Assembly (NCBI GenBank): GCA_019339365.1
Contig: CP079859.1
Coordinates: 2,170,001-2,234,000, forward strand
Reading direction: 5' to 3'
Length of the DNA: 64,000 nucleotides
Source: Vibrio neptunius
GTDB lineage: Bacteria > Pseudomonadota > Gammaproteobacteria > Enterobacterales > Vibrionaceae
Positions 26,527-47,647 of the stretch are shown piece by piece. A program made the translations under genes and the position numbers. The notes below the pieces were generated by a model. That model was not told the DNA's origin and did no database searches. It saw only the letters and a program-made list of their open reading frames with translations. The stretch's first letter is position 1; every line of letters begins with the position of its first letter.

Positions 26527-26598
26527 GAGGTAAGGAAAAAATAAAGGCAACTTATTTAACTAATTCAACCAGTTACCTTTACTTTTGCCTCATAAAAA

Positions 26599-26871
26599 CT
26601 ATGCGGATTTTTTCTGATTCGTAACCCGTTCAATTGCCTCTACAACACGCTCATTTTTGGAGCGTTCAGCAATGATAGCTAACAATGTTAGATCCGGGTC
26701 TAATCCCAAAATTACTGCCACTTCACACGCCAGATCATCACTCATAGAGCGTCCATTTCTCCAGCTTTGTACGGTCATATGGCTAATACCAAGATATTTT
26801 GCGACTTCTCGTGTGCTATGTACTTGTTTTTCAATACATAAGCGTTCCAATAAGTCTAAGGTAGTTATCAT
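26599..26871 (-). CDS. CI-like phage repressor with N-terminal HTH
   Basis: About 90 aa from ATG 26871, behind GGAGGTGAG. The HTH reads TREVAKYLGISHMTVQSWRNGRSMSDD; the C-terminus (LGLDPDLTLLAIIAERSKNERVVEAIERV) resembles the DUF3693-type regulators of Vibrio filamentous phages. It is divergent from the early genes and next to dif, as expected for the lysogeny regulator of the prophage. Confidence 0.75.
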   Translation of the reverse strand: MITTLDLLERLCIEKQVHSTREVAKYLGISHMTVQSWRNGRSMSDDLACEVAVILGLDPDLTLLAIIAERSKNERVVEAIERVTNQKKSA

Positions 26872-27022
26872 GTTTCTCACCTCCAAACTGGAGTATATGA
26901 CAAAGAACGGTGTAAGCGGACCGTTTACAGCAATATGTAAATGATCTTTAATCTGTTTCGTTCAAGTTGAAGTGGTTTTTGTGAAGGCCGACGATGCTAT
27001 GAACATGTCAAGTCGGGAGACT

Positions 27023-27035
27023 TTACGATCCTTTT
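27023..27035 (+). repeat. 13-bp direct repeat, copy 1 (phage control site?)
   Basis: TTACGATCCTTTT recurs exactly at 28460-28472. One copy lies before the first early gene and the other right after the replication gene, so both could be operators of the repressor. A hairpin (AGCCCCC with GGGGGCT, 27038-27071) follows this copy. Confidence 0.4.
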
Positions 27036-27037
27036 AA

Positions 27038-27071
27038 AGCCCCCTAAGTGATTCGAAGCGCTACGGGGGCT
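27038..27071 (+). terminator. Leader hairpin upstream of phage early genes
   Basis: AGCCCCC (27038-27044) pairs with GGGGGCT (27065-27071) around a 20-base loop. No clear T-run follows, so attenuator or structural RNA is as likely as termination. Confidence 0.4.
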
Positions 27072-27136
27072 ATCTGATAAAGGATTCGTAAAAGCCACTA
27101 AGTATTGACCAGATAAAACAAAAAAGGATCAAATTT

Positions 27137-27502
27137 ATGTCAGTTACACGTCAATCTCTCACACCTGGAACATCCGAATACGTACACTCTTCTACTGAGC
27201 ACACCCAAGAGAAATGGGATGTATTTACTCAGCAATGCCAACAAATGCTGTTACGTGTTATTCAATTAAACGCGACGTTACCACACAAGATATCATTTGA
27301 TGTTCACGGCGATTCTGCGACTTTGTACTGGTATGACACTAGCACTATCGGCACCAATCAAATGAAGCTTGAAAGGCCTTCATTTAGTGATAACTTGATC
27401 ATAGCTGTCTATTCGTGGGAACCCGTGGAAAATATCAATCAGTACTTCCTTGAGGCTAATATGGGCCTTGATATACTAGAAGCTGAAACTAAGGCTGCTT
27501 AA
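27137..27502 (+). CDS. Hypothetical phage early protein
   Basis: 121 aa from ATG 27137 behind AAAAAGGATC. No family recognised. It is polar with an aromatic-rich beta pattern (ATLYWYDTSTIG, AVYSWEPVENINQYF) and no membrane segment. It is the first gene of the early unit, 3 bp before the replication-type gene, so a role in replication or its control is likely. Confidence 0.7.
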   Translation: MSVTRQSLTPGTSEYVHSSTEHTQEKWDVFTQQCQQMLLRVIQLNATLPHKISFDVHGDSATLYWYDTSTIGTNQMKLERPSFSDNLIIAVYSWEPVENINQYFLEANMGLDILEAETKAA

Positions 27503-27505
27503 TCC

Positions 27506-28339
27506 ATGTCATACGAGCAGCACCCAAGCAAACTGGACTACATTTGTGCTACGTCCGGTTGTGACGAAATGGCAGATATCCCGGGCGGTATTTGCCACAG
27601 CTGCGAAACCTCTTATCAAGAGGTGGTTAACTGCCCGTTAACCAAACTACTCGATCCCCTACTCGGTCACTCTGACCCACAAGAGACCCCGGAACAAGCC
27701 CAAAGCCGTAAGACTCGTGCTCACCGTGGCTTCTGTCAGTACCACCGTAAAATCATGTACCGCACCGCGGTGTACCCGGGTTCTAACGTGGCGTTCCTGA
27801 CAGAAAACGGGCGAGCAACACAAGAAAGTATGGTCAAAGACGCGTGTCTGTTTATGGCCGCGGTCGTCAATGAAATGTGCTTAGTTTCGCGTAAAGTGGG
27901 TATACGTACTCAGCAAGGGTTTTTACTGCATACTTGGAAACATTTCGAACAGCTCACAGGCCTACCAGATTGGCGCATTAAGCAGTGTTTCAAATGGGTG
28001 CAAAAACGCGGCTGGCTATCCTCAAAACAGCCGCGCGAAAGCTACACAGGCAAGGACAATCTCCAGAAATGGCGCGGGCTCGCGTCGGTTAAGCGTGTCG
28101 AGCTGAAATACTTTGAAGATTTAGGCATTTTGAACAAGTTTCAAGACGCCCAGCAAAAGGCGAAAAGCCGACTTAAAAAACAATCGACTGACTGGAAGAT
28201 GCCAATTAAGTACATCCTAACCCCGATTACACTCCTACGTCGTCGACGCAAAGAGGCATTGGAACGTAAAGCCTCGACTAATACAAAGCCAATCATTGCA
28301 ACAGGCTTGGATTCTAACCCGCCTCCTATCCCTATATAG
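27506..28339 (+). CDS. Putative phage replication protein (zinc ribbon plus winged helix)
   Basis: 277 aa. The N-terminus has two Cys pairs (CATSGC then CHSC), a likely zinc-binding element. The middle FEQLTGLPDWRIKQCFKWVQKRGWL is a winged-helix motif like those of plasmid and phage replication initiators, and the C-terminal third is basic (LRRRRKEALERK). I do not see HUH motifs of a PM2-type rolling-circle initiator. Position between repressor and a hairpin-rich, origin-like stretch supports a replication role. Confidence 0.55.
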   Translation: MSYEQHPSKLDYICATSGCDEMADIPGGICHSCETSYQEVVNCPLTKLLDPLLGHSDPQETPEQAQSRKTRAHRGFCQYHRKIMYRTAVYPGSNVAFLTENGRATQESMVKDACLFMAAVVNEMCLVSRKVGIRTQQGFLLHTWKHFEQLTGLPDWRIKQCFKWVQKRGWLSSKQPRESYTGKDNLQKWRGLASVKRVELKYFEDLGILNKFQDAQQKAKSRLKKQSTDWKMPIKYILTPITLLRRRRKEALERKASTNTKPIIATGLDSNPPPIPI

Positions 28340-28459
28340 TGCCGTTTTGTCTGTATGCCCCTTAGTTGGGGCTTTCTGCGTTTCTTTGGGCTCAGGCTGA
28401 GCCATAGAGCGTGGTTATCACGGCTATTTTTGCCGCGGTAACACATCAGCTTGTCCAGA

Positions 28460-28472
28460 TTACGATCCTTTT
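28460..28472 (+). repeat. 13-bp direct repeat, copy 2
   Basis: TTACGATCCTTTT, identical to 27023-27035. It opens the non-coding region after the replication gene. Confidence 0.4.
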
Positions 28473-28583
28473 GCCCTCATTTTTATCATTAAAATCAGAA
28501 GTGTGCAGTTTTTAACCCGTGAAGTACTCCATACTTTACTCTATGGCTTTACTCTATATATTCCCTCCATTTATGTACATTCC

Positions 28584-28778
28584 CTAGTCTTCGACTAGAA
28601 CGCCTTCGGTTAGAGATAGTAAAGATCTTAAAGGATACTGCCTAAAGGCAGTTGAGAGTGAAGCGGCTCTACTTGGTCGCAAGCGACCTGGAGCCTTTCA
28701 GCGCTGAACCACGCCAATACAATCGACTGACTTTCTCAAAGGCGTTTAGTGTATGGGCCGTTTATGTCGCTGCGCGAC
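28584..28778. other. Hairpin-rich candidate replication origin of prophage 1
   Basis: Within the 634-bp gap between the replication gene and the cargo gene are several dyads: CTAGTC/GACTAG (28584-28598), ACTGCC/GGCAGT (28637-28652), GGTCGC/GCGACC (28675-28688) nested in GGCTC/GAGCC (28665-28695), and GTCGC/GCGAC (28766-28778). The density of short perfect hairpins after a replication gene fits an origin or nick site, but could also be terminators. A 63-codon ORF at 28749-28940 is not convincing. Confidence 0.4.
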
Positions 28779-28973
28779 GATTCTGGCAAGGCGACGGTGG
28801 AGATTTTAGGGGTGGGTTTACTTGAGGTAAATAATACGTCGTCATGGTTTAGAGCGACTCGTAAAGACCAAAGCCATACCTTTATGATATCTGCTTGTTT
28901 TAGAAAGGTTGAACGTGTAGCTTGCAGAAAAGCGTTGTAGTTGCGAATACAAGATTGTTTGCTTTAAACACAA

Positions 28974-30011
28974 TTACGGCGTATACCTTCTAGGATCCAC
29001 ATCAAGTCTACCCAAATCAAAAGGTCTCAACCTGCTCTCTTCAAAAAGTTCTATCTTGGTTCGAAAAACCATCATTTTATGGTGTTTGTCCGTAACTAAT
29101 GGTCTCTCTTTCAACACGATAGCTAAACATACTGACATCACCATTGAACCGAACTCTATTAACTCCTCATCTGTAAAGTCTTTCATGTATCGATTCTTAC
29201 GATACTCTTCTTCAATCCATTCTTGACCTCTTAACGGCTCTGTGGTTTTAGGCTGTTTAAATTTCTCAATATAAAGCGACTCATCGGTGTTGTTGCATAC
29301 CTTGTATTTACACTTATTAAAGTAAGAATAACTTTCAATAAGGTTGCCAAGAGCTTGATCTGCAATATCAGTGATTTCTGTTGCTGCAACCTTATCATTA
29401 ACGACGTGATAAATTGGTATAGCTATGCCAGCTTGGTTCGAGTCTTTCAATTTATGGGTATCTTGGATCAAGATAACGTTGTGAATATTTGCAAACCTTA
29501 GTTCGTTTTGTGGATTTTGGGCACATAACATATCTGCTATGTAACCTACTAAAACATTAGGTTCAAAAAATTCAGCAAATTCATTAATGATGATTAGCGT
29601 TCCAGTAGTTCTACTATCCATTTTCAAAGTATCAATCGTTGATATGATCTGCTTGTTAGCACTTCGCAAGATGGTTTCAATTTGACGAAATGCTTTTTGT
29701 TCAAATTTTTGAATAACAATATCACCATCAGGCAGTAGACTGACTACGCGGCGAAAATTCAGCTTTCCATAGATGGCCGGAAAATCGGGACGTTTCATAA
29801 CCTCATGGAAAAAGTTTGCCATCCTCTGTGTAGGGTCTTCTTTGAGAGTTTTTAGTTCAATGACAGTAACATCCCTTATGGAGTAGTCAGCGATCCTAGT
29901 ACCGTCAGGAAACTTCTCTTCCATCTCATCTAGGTCCTCAACCGCCTCATACTGAGTCATAAACGACTTGAAATTCTCTTCGCTAGAAAAGTCCATTCTC
30001 TTATTGCTCAT
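28974..30011 (-). CDS. Prophage cargo protein, possible nuclease-fold (ExK motif)
   Basis: 345 aa, opposite in strand to the phage genes and flanked by non-coding DNA on both sides, as for a cargo gene with its own promoter. Near residues 40-57 it has PDGTRIADYSI then VTVIELKTLK, which fits a PD-(D/E)xK core. No other domain is recognised, and no signal peptide or TM is seen. A defence or superinfection-exclusion role is an inference from context. Start ATG 30011. Confidence 0.6.
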   Translation of the reverse strand: MSNKRMDFSSEENFKSFMTQYEAVEDLDEMEEKFPDGTRIADYSIRDVTVIELKTLKEDPTQRMANFFHEVMKRPDFPAIYGKLNFRRVVSLLPDGDIVIQKFEQKAFRQIETILRSANKQIISTIDTLKMDSRTTGTLIIINEFAEFFEPNVLVGYIADMLCAQNPQNELRFANIHNVILIQDTHKLKDSNQAGIAIPIYHVVNDKVAATEITDIADQALGNLIESYSYFNKCKYKVCNNTDESLYIEKFKQPKTTEPLRGQEWIEEEYRKNRYMKDFTDEELIEFGSMVMSVCLAIVLKERPLVTDKHHKMMVFRTKIELFEESRLRPFDLGRLDVDPRRYTP

Positions 30012-30255
30012 CTGCTATTTTCCGTTATTGATTTATGCATTGGTAATGCAATTAGTTGCTTTTATCTTACATCTAACCATTGCCAATGAAAAATATGTAA
30101 CTAAAGTGGATACTTGTTTTGAAGGAACTGGCCGCATTGTGGCCCCTTTTTATATAAAACAAGTGCCTTATGGGTATAAGATATGTATAATCCTTAGCGG
30201 ATTCGTAAACTCTCCCGGCTTGTTCCAGTTAACGTCAGTTAAGGTAACGAGCTCT
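30012..30255 (+). promoter_or_regulatory. Promoter region of the phage structural operon
   Basis: A 244-bp gap between the divergent cargo gene and the first late gene. CAGTTAAGGTA at 30236-30246 recurs at 31551-31561 before the packaging ATPase. No gene was seen in it. Confidence 0.45.
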
Positions 30256-30384
30256 ATGCCACATCAAGATACTAAATCGCAAATCGTCACCCTTTCCCTG
30301 TCAGGCTTAATCTGTCTCGGCTTTTTCATACCTAATAGTCTTCCTGAGCTTTCGATCATGTATGTGTCAAAGGTACCGCTATGA
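30256..30384 (+). CDS. Small membrane protein of prophage 1
   Basis: 42 aa from ATG 30256, the first start with a ribosome site (AAGGTAACG) in an ORF that would otherwise run back into the cargo gene. One hydrophobic helix (IVTLSLSGLICLGFFI). The stop overlaps the next start (ATGA). Function unknown. Confidence 0.5.
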   Translation: MPHQDTKSQIVTLSLSGLICLGFFIPNSLPELSIMYVSKVPL

Positions 30385-30626
30385 GCCTAAGAGAGCGATT
30401 CACCCGCATCATTAACGACATCAAGCAAACCAGTCAAAAGCTCGAGGACGAGTCCCCCGATTGGGCCAGCGTGTCTGCGTTCAAGTTGGTTGGCGTTGTG
30501 AAGGAATACGTCATTCAAAACTTTAACGCCGCTCGGCTCATCTTCGATCGCAAAGTCTCAGCCCTGGAGAATCTACAGGCGCAAATCGACGAACTCAGAC
30601 AGGAACTCAAGGGAGAGAAACAATGA
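30381..30626 (+). CDS. Hypothetical phage protein, helical
   Basis: 81 aa, mostly charged helix with a C-terminal coiled coil (ALENLQAQIDELRQELKGEKQ). It is coupled by 4-bp overlaps to both neighbours. Function unknown. Confidence 0.65.
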   Translation: MSLRERFTRIINDIKQTSQKLEDESPDWASVSAFKLVGVVKEYVIQNFNAARLIFDRKVSALENLQAQIDELRQELKGEKQ

Positions 30627-31021
30627 TTTTAGGATACGTCACCTGCACGGCTCCAGGCTGCAATGAACCGATGGAAGTGTCGCAGCGTAGCAAGTACCTT
30701 AAAGGCCGCTGCAATGCGTGTGAATGCACCGAGCAGCGCGCCAATACCAACACTCAACACTACCTCAGCCAATATATGCCTTTGGAAGCGCTTAATCAGG
30801 TACATGAATTGCAACCGGAAGGTACATCCGAGCAACAAACCGCGGCAGAAGTGCAACCCGAACCCTCAAATGTACCGACGCCAAACGCATCCGATACGCC
30901 TCAGGAAGACAAAAAAAACGCCTCAGATAAGGATTCCGGTGGCGGCTGGGTGTTTGCCAGTATTGGCGCGTTCCTGGGCTACGGCCTAGGTAAATTCATT
31001 TCAAACGTCAGATTCGCATAA
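30623..31021 (+). CDS. Zinc-finger protein with C-terminal membrane anchor
   Basis: 132 aa. N-terminal Cys pairs (CTAPGC, later CNACEC) suggest a treble-clef or ribbon zinc site. A Pro/Glu/Thr-rich linker follows, then a Gly-rich hydrophobic helix (VFASIGAFLGYGLGKFI). PM2 encodes small zinc-finger transcription factors for its late genes, but the membrane anchor here is different, so a structural or membrane-bound regulatory role is open. Confidence 0.6.
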   Translation: MILGYVTCTAPGCNEPMEVSQRSKYLKGRCNACECTEQRANTNTQHYLSQYMPLEALNQVHELQPEGTSEQQTAAEVQPEPSNVPTPNASDTPQEDKKNASDKDSGGGWVFASIGAFLGYGLGKFISNVRFA

Positions 31022-31034
31022 GGAAAAATCACTA

Positions 31035-31538
31035 ATGAGCCAGAAAAATCCAACCAAACAAGAACAAGTTATTGAAGAACAACTAGAAATCGAAACGCGT
31101 TCTGCAGAAGATAAAAACCAATTTCTGAATGAGCTAGAGAGCGATTTTGATCCAGACGCGGCCCTGGCAAAGCAAAGCCAGGAAGAAGACGAGAAGCAAA
31201 AGCAAGCCGAACTTCAAGCCTTGGCCGATGAAGCCACCAAAGAAGGCGTACTCATGGCGCTAGGTGGGATTGAGGCGGTTTTAAAGGAGACGGTCGACGA
31301 ACGCCTAGAGATTGGTGAGGAAAACGCTAACGTGCTTGCAACGTCCGCGGTGCCTGTCATTCATAAGTACAACGTAACGCCCCCACCCTGGGCAGTAAAA
31401 TACAAAGAAGAAATTGGTCTAGGTTTAGCGCTGGCGACCGTGAGCTTTTCCTTGTTCATGCAGCACCGTTCGCTGAAAAAGGCCGACCGACAAGCCGCGC
31501 TCGAGAGACAGCGTGAAGCGGAACAAAACGCGGCGTAG
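31035..31538 (+). CDS. Phage membrane protein with acidic coiled-coil N-terminus
   Basis: 167 aa. The first ~120 residues are strongly acidic and helical; one TM helix follows near residues 127-147 (IGLGLALATVSFSLFMQH), then a basic tail. Probably a virion-membrane or assembly protein; family not recognised. Start ATG 31035 behind TAAGGAAAAA. Confidence 0.65.
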   Translation: MSQKNPTKQEQVIEEQLEIETRSAEDKNQFLNELESDFDPDAALAKQSQEEDEKQKQAELQALADEATKEGVLMALGGIEAVLKETVDERLEIGEENANVLATSAVPVIHKYNVTPPPWAVKYKEEIGLGLALATVSFSLFMQHRSLKKADRQAALERQREAEQNAA

Positions 31539-31550
31539 TGACCCTAGTCA

Positions 31551-31640
31551 CAGTTAAGGTATATCTGAGACACTTAATATTAGGTATCTAAGGCATATAA
31601 GCCAGTACCAATAAGACCGTCCAACGTTGGACGGTTTTTT
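31551..31640 (+). promoter_or_regulatory. Late-gene control element, copy 1, ending in a terminator
   Basis: Contains CAGTTAAGGTATAT, ATTAGGTATC and AAGGCATAT in about 50 bp, then CCAATAA and a perfect hairpin CCGTCCAACGTTGGACGG (31617-31634) with T6. The ribosome site of the packaging ATPase lies immediately after. The same arrangement recurs at 32328-32423. Confidence 0.6.
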
Positions 31641-31653
31641 ATTGGAGGCATCT

Positions 31654-32310
31654 TTGGAACCCATCAACAATAATAACAAGCTCGATAACCATCACGCCTA
31701 TGTGGTCGGCATGTCGGGCTCTGGTAAATCTTCCCTGGCGAAAAAACTATTGATTGCGGCCACAGACCAGGTGGCAATTTACGATCCCAAACGCGAATAC
31801 GACGGAATGCTCAAGGGCCGTAAAATCCGTGTTTATACCCACTTAAAAGCCTTTGCCAGTGCCCTGCTCGCTGGTCGTGAGACTCGTCAGGGCTTTAAGA
31901 TTGCCTACCGTCCGAATGAGTCTTGCGCGAAAGACTTTGATTTGTTCTGCCGCGTGGTCTGGGGCTGCGGTGACGGCAAACATAAAAAGCCGCTAAAAGT
32001 CATCTGTGAGGAGGTGGCGGAGAATTCCACAGGCTCAGGCAAAGCGACAGGTTATCACGGTAAACTGCTGCGCCTGGGGCGCTCTTACAACATCCACACT
32101 ATTAATTTGTTCCAACGCGGCCAGGAAGTGCCTAAAACCATCATAGATAACTGTGAATATGGTTACGTGATGTTGACTAAGACCCCCAAAAGCCGCCGCT
32201 ATCTAGAAGACCTAACCGGAATATGTGCCTTAGAACAGGGAAAGTTGCAGCGTTTTGAATACTTCTGCCAGGTCGGGATCGAGGTCCAACGGGGCAAAAT
32301 ACGCTGGTAG
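31654..32310 (+). CDS. Corticovirus-type genome packaging ATPase (P9-like)
   Basis: 218 aa from TTG 31654, chosen because GGAGG is 7 bp upstream and no ATG is suitable. Walker A GMSGSGKSS lies about residue 20, Walker B region LKVICEEVAE about residue 120, and the conserved segment INLFQRGQEVPKTIIDNC follows. Such HerA/FtsK-superfamily ATPases pump DNA into internal-membrane capsids of PM2, PRD1 and STIV types. It is absent from prophage 2. Confidence 0.85.
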   Translation: MEPINNNNKLDNHHAYVVGMSGSGKSSLAKKLLIAATDQVAIYDPKREYDGMLKGRKIRVYTHLKAFASALLAGRETRQGFKIAYRPNESCAKDFDLFCRVVWGCGDGKHKKPLKVICEEVAENSTGSGKATGYHGKLLRLGRSYNIHTINLFQRGQEVPKTIIDNCEYGYVMLTKTPKSRRYLEDLTGICALEQGKLQRFEYFCQVGIEVQRGKIRW

Positions 32311-32327
32311 TTTGTGAAATCCATCAC

Positions 32328-32423
32328 GCTTAAGGCATATCTAAGGCATATCCACATTAGGTATTGAAGGCACATATCGCGTTACCAATAAAGCCGTCCA
32401 CTAAGGGCGGTTTTTATTTGGAG
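32328..32423 (+). promoter_or_regulatory. Late-gene control element, copy 2, ending in a terminator
   Basis: AAGGCATAT twice (32332, 32343), ATTAGGTATTGAAGG, then CCAATAAAGCCGTCC with GGGCGGTTTTT, a hairpin with T-run, followed directly by TTTGGAG as ribosome site. It is about 70% like copy 1 by eye. A terminator placed just before the ribosome site suggests antitermination or attenuation. Confidence 0.6.
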
Positions 32424-32434
32424 TACAACTCAAC

Positions 32435-32554
32435 ATGATTAAATTGAACGCAAAAAATCTTCTTATCCTAGTCGGCGTGTCCATAGCCAGTGCCGCGGTC
32501 GTCGTTTGGGCGTCAAACAACGTCGATTCCGTTGAAGATGTGATTGGCGACTAA
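32435..32554 (+). CDS. Small virion membrane protein (39 aa)
   Basis: MIKLNAKNLLILVGVSIASA opens a single TM helix. The prophage 2 gene at 47418-47549 has the same opening pattern (RLNARNMAIIAGVS) and the same place just before its capsid gene, which supports both as real. The ribosome site is TTTGGAG. Confidence 0.75.
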   Translation: MIKLNAKNLLILVGVSIASAAVVVWASNNVDSVEDVIGD

Positions 32555-32565
32555 GGGAGAAGCGC

Positions 32566-33375
32566 ATGATTTCTGTAATGAAACTGAATTCGTTCACGGG
32601 TGCTGGCTATGGCGAAAAAGCCTCTTTGGTCATTCCGACAGGTCCGGTGTACGAAGAAATCTTTCTTGAAACTAACCTACTCCCGGAGCAAATCACTCGT
32701 GTGACCATCACCTTAAACGGCGATGAAATTGTCGTTCTGGACGGTCAACTGATGAAGATGCTCGAAGCGTACAAAGGTCTGAATTCGACACAAGGCTTTT
32801 ACAGCATTCCACTGGCGGACATTACGGCCAAGACCAAAAATGGCATGCGTTACACGGCACTGGTGACAGAAAAGACGGATAACATTTTGCTTGAGGTGGA
32901 AATTGCCCCTGCCCCTGACGGCTCACCGGATGTGCAACTGAAAGGCTTTGCGTCCGTGTCGCCAGCGCAAGCGGCTCGCATTGTCGTACCGCAAATCAAA
33001 AAGCAAACCATGCAAGCCACGTCGACGGAAAACGAGTTCTTAGACCTGGTATCTAGTGAGCTGCTGTTCGTGCGTCGTATGCACTTTGTCAGCGACAAGA
33101 TCACTTCATTGGAAATGTTCCGTGACTACATCCGTGAATACGACTCGACGGCCGTTGTCGACAAAATGCGCGCCCTACGCAATCGCCGTTTCTGGCAGTC
33201 GGGCTATTTTCATTTCGATCCAATCATGCGCGGTTATTACCTAGATGAATTGATGTCGACCGCGCACGACAATGAGCTCAAATTCACGGTGAAAACAACC
33301 GCGCCGTGTGGATCGATTCCGATCATTGTCGAGTCTGTCAAAGTGGTGCGTCCTGATCTGATTGGCGGCGAGTAA
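32566..33375 (+). CDS. Major capsid protein, double jelly-roll, PM2 P2-like
   Basis: 269 aa, the size of the PM2 capsid protein as I recall it. Beta-rich throughout, with LVIPTGPVYEEIFLETN, ITRVTITLNGDEIVVL and GYFHFDPIMRGYYLDEL. The same blocks occur in the capsid protein of prophage 2 (46587-47408), which differs at about half of positions. It would form pseudo-hexagonal trimers on an icosahedral, membrane-containing virion. Start ATG 32566 behind AGGGAGA. Confidence 0.87.
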   Translation: MISVMKLNSFTGAGYGEKASLVIPTGPVYEEIFLETNLLPEQITRVTITLNGDEIVVLDGQLMKMLEAYKGLNSTQGFYSIPLADITAKTKNGMRYTALVTEKTDNILLEVEIAPAPDGSPDVQLKGFASVSPAQAARIVVPQIKKQTMQATSTENEFLDLVSSELLFVRRMHFVSDKITSLEMFRDYIREYDSTAVVDKMRALRNRRFWQSGYFHFDPIMRGYYLDELMSTAHDNELKFTVKTTAPCGSIPIIVESVKVVRPDLIGGE

Positions 33376-33386
33376 CAGGAGGCGCT

Positions 33387-33671: not shown

Positions 33672-33680
33672 GGGGGATTC

Positions 33681-38528: not shown

Positions 38529-38563
38529 GTTTCGAACGTCTAACACCTGGAGGTTTTTTAATC

Positions 38564-40522: not shown

Positions 40523-40654
40523 GATTGCCTCCGGTAACTTCTGTGAGTTGGGGTTATGGTAAACCTTGTCATTGTACGCGATGAGACGCCCTTCTTGAAC
40601 GCTATCTAATACCACCTTACACTAACTCGAAAGCTTTTGGTTTAGGATCTTTTA

Positions 40655-41269: not shown

Positions 41270-41407
41270 TGACAGCGAATCGTACTTACGTTTATCGGCT
41301 TTTAACTTACGTTCAATCGTCTTGACTGATTCACCGGTTTCAATTGCTGTAGAGCTGGCAACGGAGCGAAAGATCATCGCTTGAGTCACTTTTTTTCTTC
41401 TTTTCAT
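41258..41407 (-). CDS. Small basic protein (49 aa)
   Basis: MKRRKKVTQAMIFRSV at the start, then a charged helix (SVKTIERKLKADKRKY). Codon structure is coherent but the ribosome site is weak. It overlaps the end of the Fic gene on the other strand. Confidence 0.35.
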   Translation of the reverse strand: MKRRKKVTQAMIFRSVASSTAIETGESVKTIERKLKADKRKYDSLSLAV

Positions 41408-41594
41408 CTTTCATAAGAAATTACCGATTCGTATCACTAAGTGCATGTTTAGATCGTATAACAACAACCTCGGATTATCAACGTAAAGAGCGACGGCAGG
41501 CATATTTATGAGATAGGATACAAATTACCAACGATTGAATGGAAAAAGCCAGTGGAGGACTGAATCAGCATAAAAAACGCCGCTTACACGACGT

Positions 41595-41726
41595 TTATGG
41601 GTTAGGAGAGATTTGGTAGGATTTTACCTTACCTTCTTTTTTGGCTTGGCTATAGGCCGCTTTGATTTTCTTCATCGCTTCGACTTTCGCCTCTTTCGCT
41701 TTTGTAGCTTGGGGTTGTGATTTCAT
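41595..41726 (-). CDS. Small Lys-rich protein (43 aa)
   Basis: MKSQPQATKAKEAKVEAMKK then KAAYSQAKKEGKVKSY. AGGAGG lies upstream with a long spacer. It overlaps the 3' end of the next upstream gene (41650-42207), so one of the two ends may be misread. Confidence 0.4.
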   Translation of the reverse strand: MKSQPQATKAKEAKVEAMKKIKAAYSQAKKEGKVKSYQISPNP

Positions 41727-42207
41727 AACCTAAAGCCTCCTCACCTAAGTTGTTTGTTACTACAAAGTGTAACTCTTCGCTATAGAGCTTGGCAAGCCGA
41801 TCATAAAAGCGCTTGAGTTTGTCACTTTCAGCAACATAGAGATAAGCTTCGGCATGGCTATTTCGATAGTGGAAATCGAGCAGCTCTTTGATGATGTAAC
41901 CCAGCTCACGCATCGCGGTAACTGAGAGCGCGATATCAGGCTTGTCAAAGAAATTATCCGACTCAAAGTTCACTTTGAGGTCAAATTTGACCTCATAACT
42001 GTGTTCTCGGTACTCAATACCAAGCTCATCGGCTTTTTCATTAATCATGTCTTTGGTTCGAGTAGCATTCACTAGGTTGAACACCATGACATAGTCATGA
42101 TGCTCAACGGTGAACTCGATGATTTGACATGAAATATCACCAATATTGAAGTCTTGAAGGATCCAGCTAGTCAAAGTCGAGCCCTGTTTATCTATTTTGA
42201 TGTACAT
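41650..42207 (-). CDS. Hypothetical protein (185 aa)
   Basis: Acidic, alpha/beta, without signal peptide or TM: SCQIIEFTVEHHDYVMVFNLVN and FHYRNSHAEAYLYVAESDKLKRFYDRLAKLY. No family recognised. No counterpart in prophage 1. Lies just downstream of the terminator of the second structural module. Confidence 0.6.
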   Translation of the reverse strand: MYIKIDKQGSTLTSWILQDFNIGDISCQIIEFTVEHHDYVMVFNLVNATRTKDMINEKADELGIEYREHSYEVKFDLKVNFESDNFFDKPDIALSVTAMRELGYIIKELLDFHYRNSHAEAYLYVAESDKLKRFYDRLAKLYSEELHFVVTNNLGEEALGYEITTPSYKSERGESRSDEENQSGL

Positions 42208-42321
42208 ATTACAAACCGTATGAAGCGATGGCTAAGCTGTACGTACTTTCTGTGTGATGCACCCAATAATTTAATGCCGAGCGTGGCGAGTCACTTTAAT
42301 GTGGTGACGCACTTCGGGCAC

Positions 42322-42348
42322 AAAAAAACCGCCCTGTTGAGCGGTTTT
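42322..42348. terminator. Terminator at the end of prophage 2 late operon
   Basis: On the minus strand ACCGC and GCGGT pair around the loop, with A-run before and T7 after. It ends the leftward structural operon. Confidence 0.8.
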
Positions 42349-42350
42349 GG

Positions 42351-42472
42351 TTAGCGTCGGCGGCGGGTTTTGCGTCGTTTGGTTTTGCTGGCTTTGACGA
42401 CTCGCCCCCTTTGATGGTGTAGCCCTTCTTGAGCTGGCCGTTGGCCTTGCGCCCTTTTCTGCTTTTAACCAT
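42351..42472 (-). CDS. Small Lys/Arg-rich protein, frame broken at a G5 run
   Basis: ATG 42472 opens MVKSRKGRKANGQLKKGYTIKG. Adding one G at the GGGGG run then gives RVVKASKTKRRKTRRRR and a stop at 42351, total 40 aa. Without it the frame runs through the terminator. The composition suggests nucleic-acid binding. Downstream of the lysis genes. Confidence 0.5.
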
Positions 42473-42623
42473 GACTATCCTCCAGTTTGCGAATTCGTTG
42501 TTCCTGATCTTGTTGGACTTTCTTAATCCAATTGATGTCGGTTTTGAGGGCGGCGATGGTCGCGGCGCTCGAGACCAGGCCGGTGACCAGGGAAATGACC
42601 AAGGCTTCGACTAATCCCATCAT
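42465..42623 (-). CDS. Small TM/coiled-coil protein of lysis module (52 aa)
   Basis: One TM helix (EALVISLVTGLVSSAATIAAL) followed by a charged coil ending IRKLEDSHG. Homologue of 37726-37878. ATGA overlap with the holin gene. Confidence 0.6.
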   Translation of the reverse strand: MMGLVEALVISLVTGLVSSAATIAALKTDINWIKKVQQDQEQRIRKLEDSHG

Positions 42624-43030
42624 TGCCCCCTGAGTTTGAATGAAAAGAATTCCAGTAAGTAGCGCACCATGGAGCGGAAGCCAAAGGTATCAATCACGAC
42701 GGCGCCGACGATGTACCAGTAGTATTCCGGTACGAACTCGAGCGCTTTGAATCCGTCTTGGACGTAACCGGCGTAGTCTGGAATGAAAGACAATATGAGC
42801 GGAATAAAGACGACCAACAGGATGAACTCGTCTTTCAGGCCGCGCTCTCGGATCGAGACTTCGTCCAGGTTGGCCGCCTTTTCATCGCCGGATTGAAGGC
42901 GTTTGACTTTGGCGTTGTGGCGTTCCTGGTCGATTTCATCTTTGCGTTTGAGGGCGTTGGCTTTGTTGATGCCGTGTTGTTTGTAGGCATCGATGCCTCC
43001 GGTGACGAGATTGAGTAAGGCGCCAATCAT
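42620..43030 (-). CDS. Holin, 3TM type, prophage 2
   Basis: 136 aa. KRLQSGDEKAANLDEVSIRERGLKDEF followed by hydrophobic segments and FVPEYYWYIVGAVVIDTFGFRSMV, matching the prophage 1 holin (37314-37733). Confidence 0.75.
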   Translation of the reverse strand: MIGALLNLVTGGIDAYKQHGINKANALKRKDEIDQERHNAKVKRLQSGDEKAANLDEVSIRERGLKDEFILLVVFIPLILSFIPDYAGYVQDGFKALEFVPEYYWYIVGAVVIDTFGFRSMVRYLLEFFSFKLRGQ

Positions 43031-43515
43031 GGGTACACCTGGCGGTCGAGTTCGATGTGCGGGCCGTCTTTGAACGAGGTCCAGTCGCCGCCCCAGACAA
43101 TCGGTACGCCGAGCTCCCTCGCCGCTTGTTTGAAGGCCCAGCTGACTTGTTCGTAGTAACTGAAGCCCCAGGTCACTTTGCCGTGTTCGTCATACACGAC
43201 GTAGTCGATGGCGTGGCCGGTTTGGTGGCGGCTGATGCGTGAGTAGCCGTCGAGCTGGCTGGCGCCGTCGTTAAACAAGGCGTGTTGCTGTTCTGCCGTG
43301 CGTTTGCCTGAGGTGATGCCAAAATCAAACGGGCTGAGTTCGAGCGCGCGGCGCACGACGTTTTTGAGGTCGTGATGGACGCCCGTCAGTTTGGTTTCGC
43401 TTTTGACCGACAGCACAAAGCCGCTGACGGCTTTATCGATGGTTTTTTTGTTCATCAGGTACACTCCGATTAACGTCAGGAACCCAGCGAGGGTGCCCAA
43501 CTTGGTGACGCTCAT
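43027..43515 (-). CDS. M15-family peptidase (endolysin), prophage 2
   Basis: 162 aa with N-terminal anchor (LGTLAGFLTLIGVYL) and VanY-like domain: SRHQTGHAIDYVV and WTSFKDGPHIEL hold the zinc ligands. The catalytic domain is nearly the same as in prophage 1 while the anchor differs. It is the most conserved pair between the two elements. Confidence 0.85.
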   Translation of the reverse strand: MSVTKLGTLAGFLTLIGVYLMNKKTIDKAVSGFVLSVKSETKLTGVHHDLKNVVRRALELSPFDFGITSGKRTAEQQHALFNDGASQLDGYSRISRHQTGHAIDYVVYDEHGKVTWGFSYYEQVSWAFKQAARELGVPIVWGGDWTSFKDGPHIELDRQVYP

Positions 43516-43847
43516 AGGTCAAAATCCGGCAATTGGGTGACGAGTAAGGTTCGGGCCTTAGCCCGTTTGGTCCGCACTTCTGGCGGCACGTCGGCCCCGG
43601 TTTCAAACTGGCGCGTCAGATAAAAATCGGTCGCGTCCAGATAGCGTTTCGCCTGTTCACGCTGCTGGGCTAATCGTTGCTGTTGCTCGACATCAGGCAG
43701 CAGGACAAAGGCCTCACCACTCCAACGGTAGTGTTCTGGATGTGCCAGCACCTCAGGCGCAGGCGGCGCGTCGACACGGATGAGCTCTGTCGACGGTTGA
43801 GGCGCGTTAATACTGATGATTCGACCTTGCTTATCGACTTGTATCAT
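43512..43847 (-). CDS. Fibre-assembly-like chaperone (111 aa), prophage 2
   Basis: N-terminal IQVDKQGRIISINAPQP and C-terminal YLDATDFYLTRQFETGADVPPEVRTKRAKARTLL fit phage tail-fibre assembly/chaperone-like proteins. It sits where prophage 1 has its unrelated Tfa-like gene. Confidence 0.6.
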   Translation of the reverse strand: MIQVDKQGRIISINAPQPSTELIRVDAPPAPEVLAHPEHYRWSGEAFVLLPDVEQQQRLAQQREQAKRYLDATDFYLTRQFETGADVPPEVRTKRAKARTLLVTQLPDFDL

Positions 43848-44244
43848 TAGGATATCCCTTAAATCGAATACGTCCCATGATGGCCACCGTGATATTGACG
43901 TACGAGCAATTGAATTCGATAAAACGTGCCTTTTCGGGGGTCATTATGGCGATGCTGTAGCACCGATTGCTCATATTAGAAGAAAACGGAACGACCATTG
44001 CCCGGTAAGTATCGGGAACCATGAGCCCGTTCGCTTGATAGCATCGATGCCATAAAACGACTTGGTTTATATCTTTTGGTCTTTGGTTATCCTTATCGCC
44101 CCAACGGATTTGAACCTCAAGCAGTTCGTTGTTTTTTGACAAGACGAACTTCACTTTTCGGTCGGTGGCATCGGTGATGGTGGCTTCTTCCATCTCCATG
44201 CTTAGCGATTGAAAACCCGTTACTACGGGGTTGTTGAGTTTCAT
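43831..44244 (-). CDS. Putative spike/receptor-binding protein, prophage 2
   Basis: 137 aa, beta-rich, no TM. It replaces the 248-aa protein of prophage 1 in the same slot with no visible similarity. Function inferred from position ahead of the chaperone-like gene. Confidence 0.5.
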   Translation of the reverse strand: MKLNNPVVTGFQSLSMEMEEATITDATDRKVKFVLSKNNELLEVQIRWGDKDNQRPKDINQVVLWHRCYQANGLMVPDTYRAMVVPFSSNMSNRCYSIAIMTPEKARFIEFNCSYVNITVAIMGRIRFKGYPNDTSR

Positions 44245-44981
44245 CAGCGCATCTCCCCAATCTTAAGGTATTCCCAAGCTTGGCTTTGGACGGTGACGTC
44301 TTGGTTGGTGTTCAGCGTCAGATGGCCTCCGGGGTAGAGGATGATAAAGCCTTGCACCAACACTGAGTGGACGTTTATATCTGGCAACTGCAGGATCAGC
44401 GCTTTGCGTGCTTCGCTGCCTTCGATGATTTGCTTCCTACCTTTAAGCTCAAGCACGCCATCTTTGATGGGCGCATAAGTGTATAAGTTGTCGTTCGACG
44501 TGACGTTGAGGCTGTCGTTATCGACATGAACATTGAGCAACGGGTTTTGAATGTCGGTTTTGACCGGGCGTTGGATGTCGACCACATTCACGTCTAAGCG
44601 GTCATTGTCGACCTGGACGTTGAGCAACGGGTTCTGAATGTCGGTTTTGACCGGGCGTTGGATTTCGACCACATTCACTGGCCGTTGCACCTCGTGCACC
44701 AAGACTGAATTCGACACATCGATTTTCTGTGCTTGCGTGAGGATCGGCACGTCACTGATTTGGTACTCAAAGGTGGCGGCGTCGCGGTGGTGGTTTTCGA
44801 GCGTCAGCTCATTGAAGGCGGTAACGTCGATGGTATCGCCGCGCTGGATTTCGGTCGGACGCAGCGCATCCCCCCACAGCAGTAAGTCGTGGGTTGATTC
44901 GCGCAGAATAAGAAACTTCCCCGCCTGTCCGGCGTTGAAGCTCAGGGTCTGATTGGGTTCAAGGGTATGACGTTGTTTCAT
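44244..44981 (-). CDS. Virion protein with 29-residue tandem repeat, prophage 2
   Basis: 245 aa. N-terminal domain as in 34990-35586. The middle holds two near-identical 29-residue units, each with IQRPVKTDIQNPLLNV-VDND, encoded at about 44505-44680. Probably a stalk in a vertex or spike protein whose length varies by repeat number. Confidence 0.65.
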   Translation of the reverse strand: MKQRHTLEPNQTLSFNAGQAGKFLILRESTHDLLLWGDALRPTEIQRGDTIDVTAFNELTLENHHRDAATFEYQISDVPILTQAQKIDVSNSVLVHEVQRPVNVVEIQRPVKTDIQNPLLNVQVDNDRLDVNVVDIQRPVKTDIQNPLLNVHVDNDSLNVTSNDNLYTYAPIKDGVLELKGRKQIIEGSEARKALILQLPDINVHSVLVQGFIILYPGGHLTLNTNQDVTVQSQAWEYLKIGEMR

Positions 44982-45967
44982 GCGGTTTTCCTTGTGACCA
45001 AAAACGCCACGGTGATGATGGTGCCGGCAATCCCGACGATCAGTGAGACGTTTTTCAATAAGGCGTTATCTGACTCCAAGCCCCCGGTTTGCTCGCGCGA
45101 TTTGGCGTCGCTGGCCATGGCCAGAGCGGCTTTGGTGGTTTCGGTTTGTTGGCCGGCCATGGATTTAATCGAATCTATCGCGTATTGGCTGACTTCGGCG
45201 TTTTCTTCGAGCGCGGTCGAGCCAAAGCTGAAGGCCTCATCCACGGTGGAGCTGCCAAACGTGAAGGCCTCATCCATCGCCGAGGTGCCAAACGTGAAGG
45301 CTTCATCCACGGTGTGGTTGACGCTATCCAGCGCGCCGGTGACGACCGTTTCGTTCGACTTGAGGGTTTGTTGGCCAAAGTCGAGCGCTTCTTCGGCTAA
45401 ATTGCCGGCGATACTCATTGCACCGTGGTCGGTCATGGTGAGGTTGATGTCGGAGTCATTGACTCCAGCGAGCATCACGCCGTAGTTGTCGCGGCCCGCG
45501 GCGGCACTCCCACTCGTATTGGTGGTGGTCGTGACGTTGCTTTGACGGCTTTGTGAAGAGCTTCTTCCACCCATATCTGCAAACCTTATCCGTAAAACCC
45601 GTTCATCCCCTCGACGCTCAATCTCTTGTACCGGCAGCTTGAGCTTTTCTCGTAGGTAGCGCTCCGCGCCTGGTCGAAAGAAATGCGCACGGATTGAGTC
45701 AAATCCGTTGGCCCTGGCGTGGTTGATGGCGCCCAAGGTGCCGGCGGCCATCTTGCCCACTAAGGCGACCACGACCAGTTCATGGCGGCCATCGGGCAGC
45801 GATTCACCTCGCAGCAGCATCACGGTGTCTTCTAGGCGAAAGACCTGTTCACTGCCCTGTTGCACGGCCCGTTCGGCGTCGTTGAAGTAGTCTTTCAGGG
45901 CGGGTTTAAGTTGTTGTTTAACCCGTGTCCATTGTTCAGGCTCAAGACGACTTGTTAAGGACCACAT
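44978..45967 (-). CDS. Fused GNAT-like and helical-repeat virion protein, prophage 2
   Basis: 329 aa. Residues 1-130 match the plan of the prophage 1 GNAT-like protein; from MGGRSSSQSRQ onward it matches the 180-aa helical protein. The middle has short tandem repeats (DEAFTFGTSAM, DEAFTFGSSTV, DEAFSFGSTAL), and a TM helix ends the protein. An internal ATG at the junction could also give a separate product. Confidence 0.65.
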   Translation of the reverse strand: MWSLTSRLEPEQWTRVKQQLKPALKDYFNDAERAVQQGSEQVFRLEDTVMLLRGESLPDGRHELVVVALVGKMAAGTLGAINHARANGFDSIRAHFFRPGAERYLREKLKLPVQEIERRGDERVLRIRFADMGGRSSSQSRQSNVTTTTNTSGSAAAGRDNYGVMLAGVNDSDINLTMTDHGAMSIAGNLAEEALDFGQQTLKSNETVVTGALDSVNHTVDEAFTFGTSAMDEAFTFGSSTVDEAFSFGSTALEENAEVSQYAIDSIKSMAGQQTETTKAALAMASDAKSREQTGGLESDNALLKNVSLIVGIAGTIITVAFLVTRKTA

Positions 45968-46151
45968 ACAGGACGAACAGCCCTAGCACCACCAACAACC
46001 ACCAGGGTGATTGGTTGCCTCCGAGCTGGATGCCACCGCCGGTGAACCCCATGTTGTGGGTGCTGTTTCCGGAGGTGCCCGACATCGCCGGGCCTGACGC
46101 CCCGCCTTGCAGGCTTCCACCGCCCGTGAGTGAGGTTAACGAACCCAGCAT
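45942..46151 (-). CDS. Gly-rich membrane protein (69 aa), prophage 2
   Basis: Gly/Ser-rich N-terminus and C-terminal TM helix (PWWLLVVLGLFVLYVVL). Starts at ATG 46151 in a TGATG overlap. Counterpart of 33830-34045. Confidence 0.7.
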   Translation of the reverse strand: MLGSLTSLTGGGSLQGGASGPAMSGTSGNSTHNMGFTGGGIQLGGNQSPWWLLVVLGLFVLYVVLNKSS

Positions 46152-46291
46152 CACCGGCCTCCTTTAAACAGGTACAGCAACACGGCGATCATGCCGACGA
46201 GGAGCATCAATTTGTTGAGGCCTTTGCCGGCACTTAAGCCAAACACACTGCCAACCCCAAAACCGCCCAGCGCCCAAAATACCAGTGGCAT
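46151..46291 (-). CDS. Small virion membrane protein (46 aa), prophage 2
   Basis: MPLVFWALGGFGVGSVFGLS, then a second hydrophobic stretch (LMLLVGMIAVLLYLF) and a basic end. Counterpart of 33681-33833. Confidence 0.7.
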   Translation of the reverse strand: MPLVFWALGGFGVGSVFGLSAGKGLNKLMLLVGMIAVLLYLFKGGR

Positions 46292-46300
46292 ACGCGTCTC

Positions 46301-46577
46301 CTATTTCTTCAACGCCAATACGACGATAAGAGCCAACGCCAACAGGCCAAGCCCACCGCCGACATACCACAACATTGGGTTGACCTTACCTTGGGGGGCT
46401 CGCCATTGGCCGAGTGACCACGTTGCCCGCATCATCGATTCTGGGATGATTCGGCTGCTGAGTGGTATTGGGGTTTGAGGATTGGTTGGTGTTATTAAAC
46501 AACCAATCCGCGTGTTCTCCGACGGAATCGAGCGCACCGGCGCCAAATTCCAGTAAATCATCAAAAAAGCTTTTCAT
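46301..46577 (-). CDS. Virion membrane protein, frame broken at a C6 run, prophage 2
   Basis: From ATG 46577 the frame gives SFFDDLLEFGAGALDSVGE, as in 33387-33671, but stops at 46386. Removing one base from the run of six G (plus strand, about 46393-46398) continues into GKVNPMLWYVGGGLGLLAL and a TM helix. Corrected length 91 aa against 94 in prophage 1. Confidence 0.7.
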
Positions 46578-46586
46578 AGGCGCTCC

Positions 46587-47408
46587 TTAGGCCGCGCCAC
46601 CGTTCAGCTTCTCTGGTCGCTCGAGTCGCACCGACTCCACCAAAATCGGAATGGAGCCTGGGACGTCTTCTGTCGTCACCGAGAACTTGAGGTTGGAGCT
46701 GTGCTGAGTCGGGAACAGTTCGTCAATCGAGAAGCCACGCACAATCGGATCAAAGTGGAAGTACCCCGATTGAGGGGTGCGTTCATTGCGCTTGGCGTTC
46801 GCTTCCGAGATAAACCGGTTGGCTTCGAACTCTTTGACGAAGTCGCGCTCAATCTCAAGCTTGGTGATGCCCTCGTGCATAAAGTGCATACGACGAATGC
46901 TGATCAGCGGGCTGGCAATCAGGTTGGTGAACTCGTTCACGCCCTGAGCGTTGGCCGGCATGGTTTCGCGTTTCATCAGCGGCACGACCACCCGCATCGC
47001 CTGGGCATTGCTCACCCAGGCATGCACCTGAATGGTCAGCTTATCGGCGTCTGCGCGTTTATTGCGGAACTGGATATCGAGGTGGATGTTGTCGCCGAGC
47101 TCGGTGACTAAGCCGGTGTAACGCACCCCGTTTTTGGTTCGGGCAACCACATCACTGAAGGGAATGACGTAATGGCCCGCGGTGGCGTCACGGCGTTTAT
47201 AGCGCTCCAGCATCACCAGCTCTTCGCCGGTTAACACGTAGATTTCTTCCGCATTGAGCGTGATGGAAATCCGCGTCATGTCCTGCGCTTCGGCGTTGGT
47301 TTCGAGCACCAGTTCGTGATACGTCGGGCCGTTGGGGATAGGCAAGGTGCCTTTCTGCCCCCAAGCGGCTCCGACCATGGAATTGAGTTTGATTGGTTTC
47401 ACTGACAT
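46587..47408 (-). CDS. Major capsid protein, double jelly-roll, prophage 2
   Basis: 273 aa. LPIPNGPTYHELVLETN, RISITLNAEEIYVL and QSGYFHFDPIVRGFSIDEL align with the capsid protein of prophage 1 from end to end. Intact, though no packaging ATPase accompanies it. Confidence 0.87.
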   Translation of the reverse strand: MSVKPIKLNSMVGAAWGQKGTLPIPNGPTYHELVLETNAEAQDMTRISITLNAEEIYVLTGEELVMLERYKRRDATAGHYVIPFSDVVARTKNGVRYTGLVTELGDNIHLDIQFRNKRADADKLTIQVHAWVSNAQAMRVVVPLMKRETMPANAQGVNEFTNLIASPLISIRRMHFMHEGITKLEIERDFVKEFEANRFISEANAKRNERTPQSGYFHFDPIVRGFSIDELFPTQHSSNLKFSVTTEDVPGSIPILVESVRLERPEKLNGGAA

Positions 47409-47417
47409 AACGCCCCC

Positions 47418-47549
47418 TTAGAACCAACCGGATTTGCCGAGGTACTTATCTAAGCCGGCCACTTTGTTGTTGACGGCAAAGATAATCGCACCTGCTGTCA
47501 CTGCCGAGACACCGGCAATGATGGCCATGTTGCGTGCATTGAGTCTCAT
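47418..47549 (-). CDS. Small virion membrane protein (43 aa), prophage 2
   Basis: RLNARNMAIIAGVSAVTAGA opens a single TM helix. Same place and pattern as 32435-32554. First gene of the leftward operon. Confidence 0.7.
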   Translation of the reverse strand: MRLNARNMAIIAGVSAVTAGAIIFAVNNKVAGLDKYLGKSGWF

Positions 47550-47619
47550 GCTGACACCCTCTGTGGAATGGATGCCCTGACCTTAGGACGATTTTCGCCA
47601 CAACGTCAGCCAGTCAAAT

Positions 47620-47647
47620 CTATTAGGCAAGGCGTTGTACCTAATAG
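47620..47647. promoter_or_regulatory. Inverted repeat in the prophage 2 late promoter
   Basis: CTATTAGG and CCTAATAG, perfect 8-bp arms 12 bp apart, 70 bp upstream of the first structural gene. The half-site ATTAGG is also in both late elements of prophage 1 (ATTAGGTAT), suggesting related activators. Confidence 0.5.

What the first reader, a model, noticed from the sequence alone, without database searches (positions are those of the whole stretch)
26527..47647. Two inverted, divergent corticovirus-like elements side by side
Two double jelly-roll capsid genes (32566, 46587) lie in parallel gene orders on opposite strands, 13 kb apart. They are too divergent for recent duplication, so two separate insertions at one hotspot are likely. 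Side-by-side PM2-like elements could recombine or mix capsids.
Basis: partly seen in the sequence, partly recalled or inferred. Interest (0 to 1): 0.85.

Follow-up and report, generated by a model that had tools for sequence, protein, structure and literature searches.

The report
Stacked tailless prophages at dif
Next to the chromosome-terminus site (dif) of a marine Vibrio sit two PM2-like viral genomes of different lineages, the inner one complete-looking and the outer one cut short and apparently locked in, and related cut-down copies in other Vibrio genomes often carry genes that look like antiviral defence.

Summary
Confirmed and extended. Both capsid genes are PM2 P2-type double jelly-roll proteins (Pfam; AlphaFold models whose best PDB match is PM2 P2), of two lineages, A and B, 48% identical. 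The array starts at a perfect dif site (26499-26526), the target of host XerCD. E1 (lineage A, 26527-39114) looks complete and ends in a dif-like att site (39115-39143); no ORF that I scanned matches an integrase family. E2 (lineage B, 39144-48244) is cut inside its packaging-ATPase gene, lacks early genes and an outer att site, and has one frameshifted gene. A conspecific genome (probably Vibrio neptunius S2394) has neither element there. The inverted layout fits a fixed, opposite polarity of the lineages relative to dif (8 of 8 A loci, 4 of 4 B loci that hold a site). So "two insertions at one hotspot" is right; "two elements that mix capsids" is only partly right. Beyond the window, B-type ends without their own capsid gene (11 places) are about as frequent as those with one (12). 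Six genomes share one truncation beside a dif, with different cargo in the same slot, some of it defence systems. Tailless prophages at dif and defence cargo are published; the stacking, polarity rule and shared truncated halves I did not find in print.

The parts
26499..26526 (-). Perfect chromosomal dif site at the E1 left edge
26527..39114 (+). E1: complete-looking lineage-A tailless prophage, 12.6 kb
   Evidence: Gene set and order as in PQ189321 (L006), V. chagasii (L105) and G243 (L129); not at this place in G144
26599..26886 (-). E1 HTH regulator at the dif-facing end
   Evidence: phrog_4441 E=3e-26; 66-96% homologue beside dif in L094, L102, L105, L129
27506..28339 (+). E1 early gene, function not shown
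   Evidence: Homologues at the early end of other A elements; no Pfam hit
28974..30011 (-). E1 accessory gene, unknown function
   Evidence: phrog_20483 E=1e-11, unknown function; no PADLOC hit
31627..32310 (+). E1 packaging ATPase, P9-like
   Evidence: phrog_2666 head and packaging E=1e-39; Pfam DUF87/HerA 1e-4, just under the curated cut-off; 84% to L006
32566..33375 (+). E1 major capsid protein, P2-type double jelly-roll
   Evidence: Pfam P2_N/P2_C; AF2 plus Foldseek to 2vvf
33387..36773 (+). E1 late genes between capsid and lysis genes (ORFs 33387, 33830, 33994, 34451, 34990, 35791, 36534)
   Evidence: phrog_10333, 33284, 8748, unknown function; synteny
36734..37219 (+). E1 M15 endolysin
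   Evidence: Peptidase_M15_4 8e-12, phrog_465 4e-55
37290..37733 (+). E1 holin-like protein
   Evidence: phrog_2524 (unknown) 4e-20; phrog_1350 holin 0.002
38564..38938 (-). E1 DUF3653 regulator at the far end
   Evidence: Pfam DUF3653 3e-8; 71-85% at the same place in L006, L094, L102, L129
39115..39143 (-). E1/E2 junction att: dif-like, exact XerC arm, 7-nt spacer, 10 of 11 bases of the XerD arm
   Evidence: no site of 2 or fewer arm mismatches in 30 base-shuffled copies of the window
39144..48244 (-). E2: truncated lineage-B prophage
   Evidence: Same orientation beside dif as B elements with ATPase and early gene in G006 and G011 (L090, L091); right edge by comparison with G144
39436..39873 (+). 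E2 DUF3653 regulator at the dif-facing end
   Evidence: Pfam DUF3653 4e-18; 67-73% in L004, L090, L091, L126
40238..41269 (.). E2 cargo slot: HTH protein (40238-40615, -) and Fic protein (40655-41269, +)
   Evidence: Pfam HTH_3, Fic 1e-16; PADLOC PDC-S04 9.5e-84 for the Fic protein, no hit for the HTH protein
41650..42207 (-). E2 cargo-slot gene, unknown
   Evidence: No Pfam or PADLOC hit
42620..43515 (-). E2 lysis pair: holin-like 42620-43030, M15 endolysin 43027-43515
   Evidence: phrog_2524, phrog_465; Pfam Peptidase_M15_4 3e-11
43512..46291 (-). E2 late genes, open reading frames
   Evidence: 43512 and 43831 match L039 at 60% and 42%; the others match PQ189304 at 44-73%
46301..46577 (-). 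E2 small membrane-protein gene, frameshifted
   Evidence: 63-aa ORF here; 85 aa in V. aestivus, 89 aa by coordinates in PQ189304
46587..47408 (-). E2 major capsid protein, P2-type double jelly-roll, open
   Evidence: Pfam P2_N/P2_C; AF2 plus Foldseek to 2vvf
47418..47549 (-). E2 small ORF before the capsid gene
   Evidence: 74-75% to B elements
47762..48100 (+). ORF with a signal-peptide-like start between the ATPase remnant and the capsid gene (cargo?)
   Evidence: the longer ORF 47696-48100 has no phrog or Pfam hit
48175..48244 (-). Last 23 codons of the B packaging ATPase; E2 ends here, joined to chromosome at 48245
   Evidence: 74% to residues 197-219 of 219; G144 homology starts at 48245

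Best explanation
A stack of two prophages at dif. A lineage-B tailless prophage (E2) entered chromosome I at dif by host XerCD recombination. Later a lineage-A tailless prophage (E1) entered at the dif that the first insertion had left intact and pushed E2 outward. Each lineage carries its att site in a fixed and opposite polarity, so the two end up tail to tail. A deletion from the chromosome side removed E2's outer att, its early genes and nearly all of its ATPase gene and joined the rest to a host gene; E2 can then no longer leave or package itself, but keeps an open capsid gene and its Fic cargo. E1 keeps two sites and its genes and is predicted to be excisable. Shown by sequence: sites, order, truncation, polarity, absence from a conspecific. 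Inferred: XerCD use, order of events, E1 activity, E2 immobility.
For: dif and att sites. Window 8376-26533 and 48245 onward align to one contig of the same-species genome G144 with only about 0.4 kb between. B elements sit next to dif in E2's orientation in G006:C2 and G011:C2. Polarity: late genes run opposite to dif in 8 of 8 other A-type loci and the same way in 4 of 4 other B-type loci that hold a site of 2 or fewer mismatches; 15 of 40 other loci hold such a site. G243:C2 has the same order dif - A element - att with one spacer difference - truncated B. ATPase remnant at the edge. No integrase family among the E1 and E2 ORFs scanned with Pfam.
Against: No induction, circle or read data. 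XerCD use is inferred from site sequence only; a published study found that tailless prophages at dif regularly carry integrases and left the recombinase open (PMC11630473, section 34). The 7-nt spacer is not a canonical dif core. Only one conspecific was found, and it has its own 0.4-kb stretch beside dif, so it is not a pristine empty site. The polarity counts are not all independent (L102-L104 are one species), and L127, counted as B by its capsid, has A-type ends. In L128 and L130 the intact dif lies at the other end of the element. Three divergent loci are mixed: two opposite, one same. Not all small ORFs were scanned for integrases.
Confidence: 0.85

Rival explanations
1. E2 is a satellite: a small element that supplies its own capsid and borrows E1's ATPase and replication.
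For: Its capsid, lysis and most other late genes are open; the capsid gene shows strong constraint against V. aestivus (dN 0.025, dS 0.60); an ATPase and early genes are present in E1.
Against: No outer att site found; its edge lies inside one of its own genes and inside a host gene; one late gene is frameshifted; the truncation points of other B halves differ (M15, holin), so there is no conserved minimal genome. The constraint reflects the whole history, not the time since truncation.
Confidence: 0.05
2. One element was duplicated, and one copy was inverted and diverged.
For: Parallel gene order and a 363-nt inverted repeat over the M15 genes, 75%.
Against: 48% capsid identity; each has closer relatives elsewhere (E1 86% in G144, E2 95% in V. 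aestivus); lineage-specific ends.
Confidence: 0.01
3. E2 is kept for its cargo: the truncated half stays because its Fic/HTH genes serve the host. This does not exclude the best explanation; it adds a reason for persistence.
For: The Fic protein matches PDC-S04; B halves elsewhere carry Gabija, Septu, Kiwa, PD-T4-4, bSEFIR, PDC-S21 and other matches in the same slot.
Against: No function tested; PDC models are candidate systems; complete tailless prophages carry such cargo too, so cargo alone does not show domestication. I chose the ORFs to scan and ran no control set of other Vibrio genes.
Confidence: 0.35

Closest known systems
Tailless (Vinavirales) prophages of Vibrio cyclitrophicus, GenBank PQ189286 to PQ189389 among the 41 hits; by strain names most likely those of Steensen et al. 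2024 (PMC11630473; link inferred)
   Same: E1 is of the PQ189321 kind (capsid 65%, ATPase 84%), E2 of the PQ189304/305 kind (capsid 87%). The paper describes dif use, an accessory locus and defence cargo.
   Different: The paper reports tailless plus filamentous co-integration and a label for two similar prophages in one site; its main text holds none of 'remnant', 'degraded', 'orientation'. Here two diverged tailless lineages are stacked and the outer one is cut.
NO16 / proposed Asemoviridae (PMC9966536)
   Same: Temperate non-tailed vibriophage with dif-like sites and proposed XerCD integration (passages and section 2.5).
   Different: Not compared by sequence here; all 41 phage records matched by the E1 capsid have V. 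cyclitrophicus-type names in the 40 rows shown.
Corticovirus PM2
   Same: Capsid fold and Pfam family; P9-like ATPase in E1.
   Different: 15-17% identity in the structural alignments; tblastn of the E1 capsid at E<=1e-5 matched Vibrio phage records only.
Filamentous phages stacked at dif (CTXphi and similar; recalled)
   Same: Successive insertions at a dif that stays intact.
   Different: An unrelated kind of virus.

Membership tests
Corticoviridae / Vinavirales | P2-type double jelly-roll capsid protein | tested here: met
   Both proteins: Pfam P2_N and P2_C; top PDB match PM2 P2
Corticoviridae / Vinavirales | P9-like packaging ATPase near the capsid gene | tested here: met
   E1 only: 31627-32310. 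In E2 tested and not met: 23 codons remain
Corticoviridae (PM2 type) | Rolling-circle replication protein like PM2 P12 (feature recalled) | tested here: inconclusive
   No Pfam hit for the early ORFs scanned; may be too divergent
Corticoviridae (PM2 type) | Icosahedral virion with internal membrane | not testable with these tools
   Needs particles
Temperate tailless Vibrio prophage, lineage A | HTH regulator at one end, ATPase-capsid order, DUF3653 regulator at the other end, dif-like ends | tested here: met
   E1 against L006, L102-L105, L129
Temperate tailless Vibrio prophage, lineage B, complete | Both ends, early genes and ATPase | tested here: not met
   E2 lacks early genes, nearly all of the ATPase and an outer att; it is a remnant of this lineage
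Phage satellite (PICI-like) | Own two att sites and a recurrent minimal gene set | tested here: not met
   E2's right edge is a truncated gene joined to host DNA
NO16 / Asemoviridae | Core genes homologous to NO16 | not tested
   No NO16 sequence was compared

The most novel reading that the evidence does not exclude
dif is a conveyor belt that turns tailless prophages into inherited defence islands: newer phages insert at dif and displace older ones, a cut from the chromosome side locks the older one in, and its dif-facing half (DUF3653 regulator - cargo - gpk - holin fragment) then persists as a docking site whose defence cargo is swapped by recombination with incoming live relatives.
Probability: 0.35. 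Interest if true: 0.7.

Novelty: new variant of a known kind. Interest (0 to 1): 0.5.

Why it matters
It explains how side-by-side viral genomes arise at one site (an intact dif after each insertion, a fixed polarity per lineage) and why the outer one is a half. If the wider pattern holds, it links the terminus of Vibrio chromosomes to the birth of defence islands and gives a testable route from live virus to host-owned immunity. It also bears on a point left open in PMC11630473, whether tailless prophages at dif use host XerCD or their own integrases: in E1 no scanned ORF matches an integrase family.

Tried and rejected
Search of viral contigs with the E1 capsid alone confirmed no relative; with a 15-row alignment, 2. 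By sequence, solved structures gave PM2 P2 at chance level for E1 (E 0.38) and nothing for E2, so folds were used. A lysis-gene swap between E1 and E2 was suspected because A relatives L003, L006 and L041 share only the first 29 residues of the M15 protein; rejected as recent, since L100, L101, L107 and L129 carry the E1 type and group with it. The trees are quick ones (SH-aLRT only; 41 capsid, 19 M15, 17 holin rows), and the capsid tree warns of long branches that meet. The 'stop inside' flags, and my first reading of L041 as broken, I now take as the natural stop of shorter capsid proteins that the alignment overran by about one residue. A flip of E2 was set aside on the polarity table. The own chromosome II dif (L085) seemed to hold a third element; only fragments matched and no capsid gene. 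Search of the large protein database was not possible.
Full report
What is there. The window is 2170001-2234000 of the larger of two contigs (3.58 Mb) of a 5.36-Mb genome. A 'same species' genome, G144, has a 92,511-base contig that fits Vibrio neptunius S2394 contig NZ_JXXU01000002.1 in length and in holding an A-type capsid hit, so the organism is most likely Vibrio neptunius (inference); below I call G144 S2394.

The two capsid genes are real and of PM2 type. Both match Pfam P2_N and P2_C far above the curated cut-offs and PHROG 8536 major head protein. AlphaFold2 models on 15-row alignments reach mean pLDDT 85.2 and 83.1; the top PDB match of each is PM2 P2, 2vvf, E 1.2e-18 and 3.3e-18, followed by capsid proteins of PBCV-1, STIV, an iridovirus and PRD1. 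Plain sequence search finds PM2 P2 only at chance level for E1 (E 0.38) and not at all for E2.

The site. One dif with no mismatch lies at 26499-26526 on the minus strand; with 3 mismatches allowed, shuffles give a mean of 0.06 matches. One perfect match lies on each of the two contigs. A second dif-like site, 39115-39143, has the exact XerC arm, a 7-nt spacer and 10 of 11 bases of the XerD arm. No site with two or fewer arm mismatches came up in 30 base-shuffled copies of the window. The right chromosomal flank holds matP and a Lon-like gene; in G022, G008 and G012 dif lies about 0.5, 0.6 and 3.1 kb from matP.

Empty-site comparison. In S2394 the DNA matching window 8376-26533 (95%) is followed after about 0.4 kb by DNA matching 48245-48910 (91%) and then 49991-64000 (97%). 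So 26534-48244 is the inserted stretch, and the protoglobin-GGDEF gene (48911-49990) is a separate presence/absence difference. S2394 has its own short stretch beside dif, so it lacks both elements there but is not pristine; it carries an A-type element on another contig.

E1 and E2. E1 has the lineage-A gene series between the two sites; I saw no broken gene in it but did not compare every gene's length. E2 has the lineage-B series from the regulator to the capsid gene, then a small ORF, an ORF on the other strand and the last 23 codons of the B ATPase; there it meets, at 48245, DNA that in S2394 is part of a small secreted-protein ORF whose start is missing here. One E2 membrane-protein gene is frameshifted (63 aa against 85 and 89 aa in relatives). 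E2's closest relative found is V. aestivus (capsid 95%), E1's is S2394 (86%). The quick capsid tree (41 rows) places them in different supported groups, with a long-branch warning.

Why inverted. Of 40 other loci with a capsid hit, 15 hold a site of two or fewer mismatches. The late genes run opposite to dif in all 8 A-type ones (L006, L102-L105, L128-L130) and the same way in all 4 B-type ones (L090, L091, L110, L127); three divergent ones are mixed. Not all are independent: L102-L104 come from one V. pectenicida genome. In L128 and L130 the intact dif is at the other end of the element, though the polarity is the same. E1 and E2 follow their lineages, so tail-to-tail is the expected result of two dif insertions. 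L127 is a B-type late module between A-type end genes, so the lineages have recombined somewhere. In G243 contig C2 the same stack occurs, probably independently: dif, A element (capsid 68%), att with one spacer difference, then a B remnant cut within its M15 gene. Two P2 genes within 40 kb on one contig occur in 2 of 64 capsid-positive genomes among 227 of the genus: this one and G011, where the pair lies far from the dif sites found. Draft assemblies may hide others.

Beyond the window. The E2 regulator has 41 matching rows in 36 of 227 genomes (a 42nd row, E1's own regulator, left out; two rows are pieces of one G197 gene). In 15 a capsid hit lies within 12 kb; by the maps, in 3 of these (G006 second copy, G153, G243) it belongs to the neighbouring element, which leaves 12: 4 with matching holin (this window, G006, G011, G093) and 8 without. 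Eleven rows have regulator and holin but no P2 capsid gene of their own, and 18 have neither, some as fragments or near contig ends. A capsid too divergent to be found would count as missing. Ten of the eleven lie in a stretch with a dif-like site of up to 4 mismatches, or behind an element that does; G182 is a 5-kb contig without one. G018's regulator is a fragment and not among the rows.

Cargo. In the slot between regulator and gpk I scanned chosen ORFs, not all, with PADLOC models and without a control set. Of the 11 halves, 10 had at least one hit at E<=1e-5 and one (G182) gave no usable ORF and was not examined: two-gene sets in G223 (GajA, GajB), G073 (PtuA, PtuB), G006b (KwaA, KwaB), G153 (PD-T4-4 A, B) and G091 (PDC-M22 A, B, plus dGTPase); others in G017 (PDC-S21 twice) and G243 (bSEFIR and a kinase); weak or partial ones in G099, G072 and G011. 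In G018 the two ORFs tested had none, but its slot carries a stretch with a toxin-antitoxin-like pair that is 93% identical over 0.94 kb to the V. cyclitrophicus prophage PQ189304, while the skeleton beside it is 80-81% identical to that prophage and 90-91% to the sibling half in G017. Against the B element of G093 the contrast is weak (cargo 88%, flanks 83-88%). This is one case consistent with cargo exchange, no more. In this window E2 carries a Fic protein close to candidate system PDC-S04; its HTH and 185-aa neighbours had no hit.

Mechanism and limits. Shown by sequence: sites, order, truncation, polarity and absence from a conspecific. Inferred: XerCD catalysis, that E2 came first, that E1 can excise and E2 cannot, and that halves are kept for cargo. 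Steensen et al. 2024, PMC11630473 (abstract, sections 30, 34 and 35 and searched passages seen) already describe tailless prophages at dif, co-integration with filamentous phages, and a variable locus with putatively complete defence systems in 18.6% of tailless variable loci. PMC9966536 (passages and section 2.5 seen) proposes XerCD use by NO16. I did not find stacked tailless lineages, the polarity rule or shared truncated halves in the listings of the five literature searches made or in what I read of these two papers; the library holds open-licence papers only, and supplements were not read.

Noticed in passing
window 48911-49990: Protoglobin-GGDEF diguanylate cyclase gene present here and absent at the same place in the same-species genome G144, as a clean gene-sized difference.
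   Followed up: partly
window 50086-51137: Periplasmic binding protein gene split into two overlapping ORFs; the G091 genome (L151) also matches as two overlapping pieces.
   Followed up: no
L085 (own chromosome II dif, 1512-9300): Scraps matching lineage-A genes beside dif, one with a frame change, without a P2 capsid gene.
   Followed up: partly
L127 (G226:C2): Mosaic: A-type end genes and att around a B-type late module that runs the other way.
   Followed up: partly
L146 (G073:C2) 2676-9838: Apparent internal deletion of a B element from the M15 gene to the regulator of the other end; both end genes remain, with Septu-like genes in the slot.
   Followed up: partly
L145 (G018:C2) 827-9656: dif and an A-type att enclose 8.8 kb without a match to my query set, next to a truncated B half; content not examined.
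   Followed up: no
window 28974-30011: E1 accessory gene of unknown function on the opposite strand, in the early part of the element.
   Followed up: no
window 36534-36773: Short E1 gene matches Pfam Phage_tail_APC (4e-9), a tail-chaperone family, in a tailless prophage.
   Followed up: no
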